DNA from: a virus
Direction: 5' to 3' (one strand)
DNA: 25,161 nt
IMG/VR virus record: IMGVR_UViG_3300042143_000037
Coordinates: 1 to 25,161 of that record
Part shown: in pieces, positions 4,771-19,104 of the stretch
How the letters are laid out: every line of letters starts with the position of its first letter
Numbering within the stretch: the first letter of the stretch is position 1
Program-made: the position numbers and the translations under genes
Notes under the pieces: model-generated
The model's database searches: none
Told to the model about the DNA's origin: nothing
What the model saw: only the letters and a program-made list of their open reading frames with translations

Positions 4771-5211
4771 ATGCCTAGATGAGATAATTTCAGATGAAAA
4801 AAACCGACTAATACGCCTAAAAGACCCAGTACTCATTGAGTAGTAATTGAGAGAGTAACGCAAGTAGGTAGACTTATTATACAATGATATCAAAGGTATG
4901 AGATAGTGGCTATATGACAAGAGAAATGGGACTTATCAGCCAGTCAAATAGATGATTACATTAAGAGAGCAAGAGAGCGAATAAAAGCCAAGAACGACAA
5001 AACCATAGGGGAGGAGATAGAGGAGACAGCGGCTCAAATTATGGATGTATACCAATGAGCTAGGAGAGATAAGAAATGGGGAGATGCTAGTAGGGCATTA
5101 AAGCTAAAAATGGAATTAAGAGGATTAGAGGCACCGAAGAAGATGATAATACAGGAGATAGACCCAGAGGATGAGGAGCTGGTACAACAATTATTAATGG
5201 ACAATGAATAA
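4771..5211 (+). CDS. terS: Terminase small subunit
   Basis: This encodes 146 residues and lies directly before the large terminase. The N-terminus is basic and Gly/Pro-rich. A helix-turn-helix-like region follows (LIIQGYQRYEIVAIGQEKWDLSASQIDDYIKRARERI), and then helices ending in the acidic tail EIDPEDEELVQQLLMDNE. This layout is usual for small terminases, which recognise the packaging site and recruit the large subunit. The call rests on position and the HTH plus helical pattern, not on a conserved signature. A five-codon ATG frame at 5204 overlaps its stop. Confidence 0.75.
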
Positions 5212-14778: not shown

Positions 14779-15978
14779 ATGCATGAATTTATAGGAAGAA
14801 AATCAGCCATCTGATTAGGAAAAGAGGCAGTAAAAGGTACAGCAGTTGCCGCTAATGTGCGAATACCAAAAACAAGTGGGGTATTAAATCCGTCTTTTGA
14901 GGAGGCAGTTGATGATAGTTGATATTGAGTTATTGATGAAATATATGACTCACAAACAACTAAAAACTTCTCTAAGATAACATTAAATGGTATTGCTAGA
15001 GATGACTTTATAGGTTATTTATTATTAGGTGCGTTAGGTAGTTATAATGCCGTACAATGTATAACATTACCAACCCCTGCTGGATGAACTCCTGCTAGAG
15101 GAGACACAGTATATGTATGAACAATATGAGCCGAAACTTGGATATGAGAGATTAAAAAAATCTTATCATTATGAACGGTAGCCACTACTTATTATTTTGT
15201 ATCTACAACAAGCGGAACCTTAGCACATTGAGATACAGTAACTGACGGTACTTGGACAGCTACCGCTTGAGTAACTGCTACAGCAGGTGTTAAATGACAC
15301 TTTTTTAGTAGAGCCAACGACAATAACCATCAAACATTTACAGTATACGATGACGACCCAATAGGAGCCGTTAAATCCACATACGCTATGATAAACACTT
15401 TTGAATTAAGTTGTGAGGTAGCAGATTATGTAAAATTTACTGCAGAATTACGAGGTAAAAAAATGAGTACAGCTAGTGCATTAAGTCCTGCTTACTCAGA
15501 CGACAACAAATTTGTTGCCAGTATGGCTCAAGTATTCTTTGCTACTAATGAAGCGGGGTTAAATTGAGCTACTGCACAATGTATGCAGAATTTTAGATTA
15601 TCAATTAATAAAAACTTGGTTGATATCCAATGTTTTGGGACAGATGATATTAATAGTCTACATAATCAACAATTCACTACTGAATGAGATTTTGAAGCAT
15701 TATATAGTGATACTGATTTAAGAAGTTTTGTAATTAATAGTGAAAAAAAGGCTTGCAGATTTGAGATAATCAATTCACAAGCCACAGCACTAGTTGCTAG
15801 CCAAATATTTCCTTCAATGTTTGTAGATTTGGCAAAGGTTGGTTTCAAAGAATGGACAAAAACTGATGCTAATAATGATATAGTAAAGCAAACACTAGGT
15901 TATACTTGACAATACGACAATTCTACAAGTATGCAAATAGAAGTATTGTTATTAAATGATAATTGAATTTGATATTAG
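14779..15978 (+). CDS. Major tail tube protein
   Basis: This encodes 399 residues. The start GRKSAIGLGKEAVKGTAVAA and the following PKTSGVLNPSFEEAVDDS are typical of large tail tube proteins ('G..t..Gta.....W.p...f.f.p......d.s..G'). The CGA at 14860-14862 stands where that family has Trp. A Gly/Thr-rich stretch at about residues 100-175 looks like an inserted beta domain. The protein polymerises into the tube. After its TAG the same frame stays open to 16128 (49 codons), and the stop region is part of a small repeat. The gene lies just before the chaperone and tape measure, as usual. Confidence 0.85.
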
Positions 15979-16096: not shown

Positions 16097-16396
16097 ATGA
16101 CACAAGAGACTTTATCAGTAGTAATTAATGGGACAGAAAAAGAGGTAGCATTTAAAGACGTTTATACAAGATGAATTGATAGAAAATTTAACGAAATTTT
16201 ATTTCAATGAGTTGAAGCTATAACTAACTCAGAATGAAAATCGGATTTTAAAATAAATCCTGACAATATGCAGAAAGCAAACGACTATATCGTAGAGGCT
16301 ATGACAAATCTTAATAGTAAAGAATTAGATTGATTGTCAGTGTCAGATTATAACGCAATTCTAGAAAAGGTTGTAGCCTTAAAAAATCCCAGTTAA
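16097..16396 (+). CDS. Tail assembly chaperone (gpG-like)
   Basis: This encodes 99 residues: a beta start (LSVVINGTEKEVAFKDVYTR), then helices and VSDYNAILEKVVALKNPS at the end. The place between tail tube and tape measure and the length match gpG-type chaperones, which coat the tape measure before tail assembly. Its end overlaps a second frame that has no start codon, so the usual ribosomal frameshift to a longer product is expected. The slip window is 16381-16394. Confidence 0.8.
16381..16394 (+). promoter_or_regulatory. Programmed frameshift site
   Basis: The sequence is AAAAAATCCCAGTT, read in the zero frame as AAA AAT CCC AGT TAA. CCC followed by A allows a +1 slip (CCC to CCA). Six A also allow a -2 slip. 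A -1 slip at the heptamer AAAAAAT would stop after about 10 codons and is not productive. Confidence 0.65.
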
Positions 16397-16631
16397 TTAT
16401 GATGATATATTAAAGAAATTTACTAAAACATTAAGAACGCAAACTTGATTATCAAAAGAGCATAGAGATTATATATTAATTAAAGAATTATATAAATGTA
16501 GTCCTAGTGAATTGGATAACCAAGATGAAAATATACTAACATTACATTATACTATGTTAATGGAGGAAAGGAAACACGAAGCACTAGAAATCGAAAGGGA
16601 AAAACAAAGGAATTCATCTCATAAAAAATAA
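16383..16631 (+). CDS. Frameshift extension of the tail chaperone (gpGT-like)
   Basis: This frame is open from 16383 to TAA at 16629-16631 and has no ATG, GTG or TTG near its beginning. After a +1 slip at CCC-A (16388-16391), translation continues as V-N-Y-D-D-I-L-K-K-F for 79 residues. A -2 slip on the preceding A run would also enter this frame. The product would be about 177 residues long. The extension is Lys/Glu-rich and helical, like other T-domains that bind the tape measure. It ends 4 bp before the tape measure ATG. This is inferred from frame structure and from the general phage pattern of chaperone frameshifting. Confidence 0.75.
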
Positions 16632-16635
16632 TATA

Positions 16636-19104
16636 ATGGGTTCAAGCGACTATAATATTAAGTTAGTGTTAGAGGCTCAAAATAAGATGAGCTGAGAGCT
16701 AGACAAGGTAACCAAACAGATGTCTTGACTAGAAAAAACCGCTCAGTCATCTTTTTCTACATTATCAAAATGATTAACTTGATTATGAATAGTCGCTTGA
16801 TTTAAAAATATTGCTGGATGAACAATAACTCTTGCTTGAAACTTACAACAAGCAACCGTTGCATTTACTACAATGCTTTGAAGTTGAGAAAAGGCTCAAG
16901 ATATGCTTATAAAGTTATCAGATTTTGCTAAAAAGACCCCTTTTGAATTGACAGGTATTAGAGACACAGCTAAACAATTATTGGCTATATGAGTAACGAC
17001 TGGTGATATAATACCTACATTAAAAAGTTTATGAGATGTTTCAGCTTGATTAAGTGTACCTATTGAAAGATTGGCACTTAATTTTTGACAAGTAAAATCA
17101 CAAGGAAAACTCACAGGAAGAGAACTTAGAGATTTTTCTCTAGCTTGAGTACCTTTAATAGCAGAACTTGCTAAGAATTTATGAGTTGCAGAAAGTGCAA
17201 TAGCTGGTATGACATCAGCAGGGAAAATATGATTTGCAGAAGTAGAAGAGGCATTTAGGACTATGTCTAGTGAATGAGGGAAATTTGAGAACCTTATGGA
17301 TGCACAAAGTAAAACATTTCAAGGGACAGTATCAAATATGAAAGACAGTATTTCTCAATTATGAGAGACTATATGATGAATATTCTTACCGTGATTGACT
17401 AGTTTAGTTAATGCAATTGTCCCTGTTATAGGCGCAATATGAGAATGGGCAAAAGAAAATCAAGAAGTAGTCAAAAATATAATAATAGCAACAGGTGCAT
17501 TGGTATGATTAATATGAGTAGTTACTATATTAATACCTCTAGTTAAAACTTTATGGCTGGTTATATCATCTAACCCTATATGATTATTAATAACAGTAGT
17601 ATACTGATTATATATATGATTGAATTTATTAAATAGTGTTATAAAGACTAGCGACCAATTAATACAACACAATAAAAATGAGATATTAGCTTTAAATAAA
17701 GCATATCAAAGCTGAACCATAGACCAAAAGAAATATGAGGAAGAGCTAAGAAGATTAAAGATAGAAATGGTTGAAAGCAAATTAAAAGCTAATTGATTAG
17801 GGAACGAAATGAAATGAAATCTTAAAACAGCATTAAGTGCTATTACTAGCCCTATAAAATGAGCAAAACAAGCTTTTCAAGATTTTAAAACAATAATGGT
17901 GGCAGTAAAGACTTGATTAATAAATTTACGATGACAAGTAAAGGCTTTTATTATTAATTTGATTAATTCAAATCCTGCATTAAAAGCTTTTGCAGACAAT
18001 TTTATGATAGTATTTTGATGAATATTAAAGTATGTTAATATAGCGGTCGGTGGTATAGTAAATTGAATATCTAAGTTGAAATCAGCATTATGATTATGAT
18101 GAGATAAAATAAAGGCGTCTGACATAGTAGATAGCTGATGATTTGATAATATGTTCCCTTGATTAGACATTTCATTAAAAGAGACAAAAGATAAGATAAG
18201 CACAATATCCGCACCTGTAAACGAAGTATGAGGAGTAGTGAAAGATTTAGCAAAAGATTTTTGAGACGCCTTTGATTATATTAATGAATGATTAGATGAA
18301 AGTATTTGAAAAATAGAATGATACCAAAAAGAGATAGAACAAATACAAGAGAGTATGAAAGAATTATGAGTAGGTGAAACAAAAGATGTTGCTAGTGAAT
18401 ATGTTAAGATAAAAGAAGAGATAGCAAAAATTAATGAAGAGTTAAATGTTGGCTGAGTATCACAAGAAAAACAACTAGAATTAATACAGCAAAGGAAATT
18501 AGCACAAGATGCAATGGCTTCGGCTTTTAGCTGATTAAGTGAAGAGGAGAGACTATTATTAAATGATAGAATAGCGTACCAAGAAAAATATAATGAAATG
18601 AACTCTATTGAAAAGATTAAAGAAGATTACGCTATAAAGAAAGAGGAGTTACAGGCGGAGCTTGATGTTAAAATAGCATTAATGGATGCAGAATTTGAAA
18701 AGATTAAACAATTAGAGGCAGACAAAATAAAACTAGAAAATGATTGGATGGTTAAATTAAGATTAGACAATACTGAACAAATAACTATGTATAATTCTTT
18801 AATCCAAAAAGCAAGAGAATTAGCAGCTGCAAGAGCTAGAGCCTGAATGTGAGGAGTGTCTTGAGCTAGGGCATTATGATGACCTGTAAATGCTTGAGAG
18901 ACTTATCTAGTATGAGAGAGATGACCAGAATTATTTGTCCCTAGTACCAAATGAAGTATAACCCCTAATAATGCTATAACTAATAATAACTGAATATCAA
19001 TCAATCTTAGTTGAATAACTGTAAAAACAGAGGCAGATATAGAGATGATAACTGATGAAATAATTAGGAAGATAAAATTAGAAAAACAATTCTGAATAGT
19101 TTAA
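16636..19104 (+). CDS. Tape measure protein
   Basis: This encodes 822 residues. The N-terminal region (LVLEAQNKMSGELDKVTKQM) is helical. Residues about 60-250 carry the conserved tape measure domain (FTTMLGSGEKAQDMLIKLSDFAKKTPFE and RDFSLAGVPLIAELAKNL). Hydrophobic, membrane-like segments lie near 275-335. Coiled-coil regions lie near 550-735. The C-terminus has GGPVNAGETYLVGERGPELF near 747-766, a common ending of tape measures. By hand count it uses TGA about 63 times for Gly, against about 19 GGN. Under the usual 1.5 angstrom per residue rule, the tail would be roughly 120 nm long. Confidence 0.95.

What the first reader, a model, noticed from the sequence alone, without database searches (positions are those of the whole stretch)
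16381..16631. Programmed frameshift in the tail chaperone, probably +1 at CCC-A
The downstream frame has no usable start codon and stays open for 79 residues up to the tape measure. It overlaps the end of the chaperone gene exactly at AAT CCC AGT TAA. A +1 slip at CCC or a -2 slip on AAAAAA gives a gpGT-like fusion, whereas a -1 slip does not. Most known phage chaperones shift -1, so this is a less common type, and in a recoded genome.
Basis: partly seen in the sequence, partly recalled or inferred. Interest (0 to 1): 0.7.

Follow-up and report, generated by a model that had tools for sequence, protein, structure and literature searches.

The report
Forward frameshift in phage tail chaperone
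A phage that reads the stop codon TGA as glycine appears to make two forms of its tail-building helper protein by having some ribosomes skip one base forward at the rare codon CCC, and about 60 related phages all keep this split gene, some shifting forward and some backward.

Summary
Chaperone gene G (16097-16396) ends AAA AAT CCC AGT TAA. The +1 frame stays open for 79 codons after CCC and stops five bases before the tape measure gene; it has no start codon near its beginning. The genome reads TGA as glycine.

I found relatives of the second frame on about 60 viral contigs. In all 60 rows where both parts could be scored (window included), T is out of frame with G, never fused. Of these, 37 use +1 at CCC AGY (32) or GGG AGT (5), one is +1 without that motif, and 22 use -1. 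All 21 distinct CCC sites read AAA NNW CCC AGY, although CCC is only 2% of proline codons. The AAAAAA run needed for a -2 slip is not conserved. CCC-AGU is the substrate on which E. coli tRNAPro(UGG) was shown biochemically to shift +1.

New are the conserved CCC-AGY motif, its use in TGA=Gly phages, and switching between +1 and -1 within one family. No protein evidence exists, and host tRNAs could not be examined.

The parts
14779..15978 (+). tail tube protein, upstream neighbour
   Evidence: Pfam PF18906 Phage_tube_2, E 6.9e-11
16097..16396 (+). G part of the tail assembly chaperone (0 frame, 99 aa, TGA=Gly)
   Evidence: PF10109 Phage_TAC_7 weakly in 11 of 12 members, below the curated cutoff for the window protein; predicted fold (pLDDT 89.5) matches an annotated tail assembly chaperone, TM 0.87/0.90
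16382..16393 (+). conserved slip motif AAA AAT CCC AGT (consensus AAA NNW CCC AGY)
   Evidence: 21 of 21 distinct CCC sites
16388..16391 (+). slip tetramer CCC-A: peptidyl-tRNAPro re-pairs from CCC to CCA (+1)
   Evidence: conservation; CCC is 2.0% of Pro codons; E. coli biochemistry in PMC8324841
16392..16631 (+). T part, +1 frame, 79 codons plus TAA; fusion gpGT 177 aa with junction KNPVNY
   Evidence: homologues in about 60 loci; predicted all-helical, pLDDT 75.8
16636..19104 (+). tail length tape measure protein, downstream neighbour
   Evidence: phrog_9959 E 2e-73; Pfam TMP_3 E 1.1e-23

Best explanation
This is a lambda G/GT-type tail assembly chaperone gene in a TGA=Gly (code 25) siphophage-type genome. 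Most ribosomes end at TAA 16394 and make G (99 aa). A minority slip one base forward when tRNAPro reads CCC (16388-16390) and re-pairs on CCA (16389-16391), then read GTT AAT TAT and make the 177-aa G-T fusion (KNPVNY junction). Shown: the frames, conservation of T as a protein out of frame with G, and the invariant CCC-AG motif. Inferred: that the slip is ribosomal; that the tRNA is tRNAPro(UGG), weakly paired on CCC and perfectly paired on CCA; the ratio of products; and the role (G on the tape measure, T recruiting tube protein).
For: T is out of frame with G in all 60 scored rows (window included), never fused. The CCC, the following AG and the AAA two codons upstream are invariant in 21 distinct sites while the codon between varies, at divergences where window-relative dS is saturated. 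CCC is 46/2294 Pro codons overall and 14/1489 in the +1 loci. No start codon lies near the beginning of T in the window. The gene sits between tube and tape measure and G resembles tail assembly chaperones. An mRNA with AUG-CCC-AGU-U, the same seven bases as the window site CCC AGT T, gives +1 product with tRNAPro(UGG) in vitro; CCC-A shifts 1.5% in E. coli and 4.2% without tRNAPro(GGG) (PMC8324841); CCC-A is the most shift-prone CCC-N (PMC4519876). Lambda's product ratio is 30:1 (PMC5009743).
Against: There is no peptide evidence. AGT is a common Ser codon here (34% of Ser), so a simple hungry-codon account of AGY fails. An in-frame CCC AGT also occurs in gene 4771-5211 at 4825 with no sign of a functional shift, so CCC-AGT alone may be inefficient. 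No 3' structure stands out in the window. Host tRNA genes could not be examined.
Confidence: 0.87

Rival explanations
1. A -2 slip on AAAAAA (16381-16386) reaches the same frame, with junction KIPVNY, as in phage Mu.
For: The window has AAAAAAT directly before CCC and the frame fits.
Against: The run is AAAAAC, AAAATA or AAATCT in most +1 relatives, while CCC AG never changes.
Confidence: 0.03
2. T is translated separately by termination-reinitiation at G's stop codon.
For: In the GGG AGT branch an ATG in the T frame overlaps the GGG in L038, L039, L040 and L044. Genes in the window lack clear Shine-Dalgarno sites, so initiation signals are hard to judge.
Against: No ATG at or near the slip in the window, and none overlapping the slip in the CCC loci; a few CCC loci have GTG one codon after the slip or start codons further upstream in the frame. 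Reinitiation does not explain why CCC is invariant or why the frame is always out of phase.
Confidence: 0.05
3. Transcriptional slippage or an assembly or sequencing indel creates the frame change.
For: The window site has a run of six A.
Against: A second contig is identical over 751 bases; the frame change is conserved in many contigs from different metagenomes, and the +1 sites share no long homopolymer.
Confidence: 0.03
4. A special tRNA decodes CCCA as a four-base codon.
For: Would give the same product; no direct evidence.
Against: No tRNA gene in the window; ordinary tRNAPro(UGG) suffices in E. coli. The window and most relatives are fragments and host tRNAs were not seen, so it is not excluded.
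Confidence: 0.02

Closest known systems
Lambda G/GT tail assembly chaperone frameshift (conserved in dsDNA tailed phages, Xu, Hendrix and Duda 2004)
   Same: Gene position between tube and tape measure, short G plus rare G-T fusion, T without its own start.
   Different: Lambda slips -1; here +1 at CCC-A. G and T gave no clear sequence match to named phage proteins in the searches run.
HSTV-2 (haloarchaeal myovirus) chaperone, predicted +1 (PMC5009743, PMC8211752)
   Same: +1 shift in the tail chaperone.
   Different: Archaeal virus; its slip site was not given in the passages read.
Listeria phages PSA, A118 and A500: +1 at AAA CCC UGA (tsh), PSA cps at ACA CCC UCC (PMC5009743)
   Same: +1 at CCC, rare in the host (5% of Pro codons), in phage structural genes.
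   Different: Tail tube and capsid genes, not the chaperone; the next codon is a stop or UCC, not AGY.
E. coli tRNAPro(UGG) +1 shifting on CCC-AGU (PMC8324841, PMC4519876)
   Same: Same CCC AGU U sequence.
   Different: Engineered reporter next to the start codon; here a conserved natural site at the end of a gene.

Membership tests
G/GT-type frameshifted tail assembly chaperone | Lies between tail tube and tape measure genes | tested here: met
G/GT-type frameshifted tail assembly chaperone | Downstream ORF overlaps in another frame, is conserved as protein and lacks its own start | tested here: met
   exception to 'no start': GGG branch
G/GT-type frameshifted tail assembly chaperone | G homologous to known chaperones | tested here: inconclusive
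   PF10109 below cutoff for the window protein; structure match to annotated chaperones; no significant PDB match
G/GT-type frameshifted tail assembly chaperone | Fusion made at a few percent | not testable with these tools
   needs proteomics or a reporter
-1 heptamer (X XXY YYZ) frameshift | T lies in the -1 frame with a slippery heptamer | tested here: not met
   -1 frame stops after 7 codons; -1 is seen only in other members such as L078, L051, L079
+1 frameshift at CCC (Listeria PSA type) | T in the +1 frame at a conserved, rare CCC codon | tested here: met
+1 frameshift at CCC (Listeria PSA type) | tRNAPro(UGG) reads CCC, with little or no tRNAPro(GGG) in the host | not tested
-2 frameshift (phage Mu type) | Conserved run allowing -2 re-pairing | tested here: not met
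   A-run not conserved

The most novel reading that the evidence does not exclude
In this family of TGA=Gly phages the proline codon CCC is a two-way slip site: W CCC A shifts +1 onto CCA and C CCC shifts -1 onto CCC, so small changes beside the codon reverse the direction. The direction has switched several times while the chaperone product is kept.
Probability: 0.5. Interest if true: 0.6.

Novelty: new variant of a known kind. Interest (0 to 1): 0.47.

Why it matters
It appears to be a natural, conserved use of CCC-AGU, a sequence studied biochemically as an error-prone substrate of tRNAPro(UGG). It extends +1 chaperone frameshifting to code-25 phages, gives a dataset in which +1 and -1 shifts interchange in one gene family, and offers a sequence signature for finding these split genes, which standard gene callers would miss.

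Tried and rejected
TGA=Trp reading rejected: TGA falls at Gly columns 374 of 469 times. Stimulatory 3' structure: none general; one sub-branch (L048, L073-L075) has a modest hairpin. Searches of named phages with G and T gave no significant match. AGY as a rare codon: rejected, it is 47% of Ser codons. Trp reading of CGA/CGG (known in Absconditabacteria): no informative columns. Two dN/dS pairs (L063/L066, L071/L075) were misanchored and the script then stopped, so the remaining pairs were not computed.

Full report
Observation. Under TGA=Gly, G runs 16097-16396 and ends TTA AAA AAT CCC AGT TAA. The +1 frame is closed by TAA 16380-16382, then open to TAA 16629-16631; from the codon after a slip at CCC there are 79 codons. 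The tape measure ATG is at 16636. A -1 shift ends after 7 codons. The open frame is unlikely by chance (7 of 5000 shuffles; 0 of 894 wrong-frame stretches). The first ATG, GTG or TTG in the frame is 41 codons past the slip.

Code. All long frames need TGA as sense. In an alignment of 49 tape measure proteins TGA falls at Gly columns 374 of 469 times. This is code 25, known from Absconditabacteria and Gracilibacteria and their phages (PMC10746230, PMC8629427). The host of this fragment is not identified.

Surroundings. Tail tube (PF18906) upstream and tape measure (TMP_3, phrog_9959) downstream place the gene where tail assembly chaperones sit. G has weak PF10109 matches in 11 of 12 members, below the curated cutoff for the window protein. 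Its predicted fold (pLDDT 89.5) matches an annotated tail assembly chaperone at TM 0.87/0.90 and 46% identity, with no significant PDB match. T is predicted all-helical, pLDDT 75.8.

Relatives. Searching IMG/VR with T and G gave about 60 distinct contigs. In the 60 rows where both parts were scored (the window and 59 or so loci, including one near-identical contig), T is always out of frame with G. Thirty-seven rows have +1 with CCC AGY (32) or GGG AGT (5), one (L089) is +1 without that motif, and 22 are -1. The contig behind L002 is identical to the window over 751 bases, so its site is not an independent observation.

Slip site. Among 21 distinct CCC sites, AAA, CCC and AG are invariant and the base before CCC is A or T, never C; the codon between is ATA, ACT, AAT or TCT. 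CCC is 2.0% of proline codons in these contigs and 0.9% in the +1 loci. The sites are related by descent, so this is retention across divergence, with window-relative dS saturated, not 21 independent draws. The A-run needed for -2 is not kept.

-1 members. Their sites include G GGT TTG (L046, L051), G GGA AAG (L078), C CCC CCG (L079-L081, L085), C CCC CCC (L067, L084) and A AAC CCC (L042); several others have C before CCC (L053, L086, L087; L057 in the longer listing), and some have no clear site (L062, L082, L088, L090, L091). A tree of G plus T needs 5 changes among the site classes; supported branches force at least two changes of the -1 label. L042 (-1) falls beside the window, with moderate support. 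The pattern W CCC A for +1 and C CCC for -1 is my inference.

Mechanism. In E. coli, tRNAPro(UGG) pairs poorly with CCC and shifts +1 to CCA; an AUG-CCC-AGU-U mRNA yields the +1 tripeptide, and in cells CCC-A shifts 1.5%, or 4.2% without tRNAPro(GGG) (PMC8324841). CCC-A is the most shift-prone CCC-N (PMC4519876). GGG AGT would allow the same move by tRNAGly(UCC) onto GGA, but reinitiation is not excluded in that branch. AGY may matter through tRNASer(GCU). The two related records with a phage tRNASer(GCU) gene (G006, G019; one also with tRNAPro(UGG)) both belong to the G GGT TTG branch that does not use CCC AGY; this is one lineage, so only a hint.

Cautions. No protein data. An in-frame CCC AGT in another window gene (4825) shows that the motif can be tolerated; a slip there would meet a stop after four codons. 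Host tRNAs were not available.

Known context. A +1 chaperone is predicted for HSTV-2 and Listeria phages use +1 at CCC in other genes (PMC5009743; PMC8211752); both +1 and -1 joined genes occur in SEA-PHAGES data (PMC10885494). Hence a new variant of a known kind.

Noticed in passing
window 4825-4830: In-frame CCC AGT in gene 4771-5211; a +1 slip there would reach a stop after four codons.
   Followed up: partly
L030 (record G006, also holding L011/L051): Phage tRNA cluster: Pro(UGG), Asn(GUU), Ile(GAU), Gln(UUG), Ser(GCU), in a member with a G GGT TTG -1 site.
   Followed up: partly
L131 (record G019, also holding L047): Phage tRNASer(GCU) in another member of the same -1 branch.
   Followed up: no
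L050 and L068 (contig IMGVR_UViG_3300028832_000146, 64 kb): Two different copies of the G/T module on one contig, both with CCC AGT; possibly two prophages or a joined assembly.
   Followed up: no
L132 (record G047, also holding L090): tRNA with CUA anticodon (called Pyl by ARAGORN) in a distant relative; possibly a TAG-reading tRNA.
   Followed up: no
L038-L041, L044: GGG AGT replaces CCC AGT, with ATG (or CTG in L041) overlapping the GGG in the T frame.
   Followed up: partly
window, all genes: 19 CGA and 4 CGG codons; these are read as Trp in Absconditabacteria (PMC8629427), and the test here was uninformative.
   Followed up: partly
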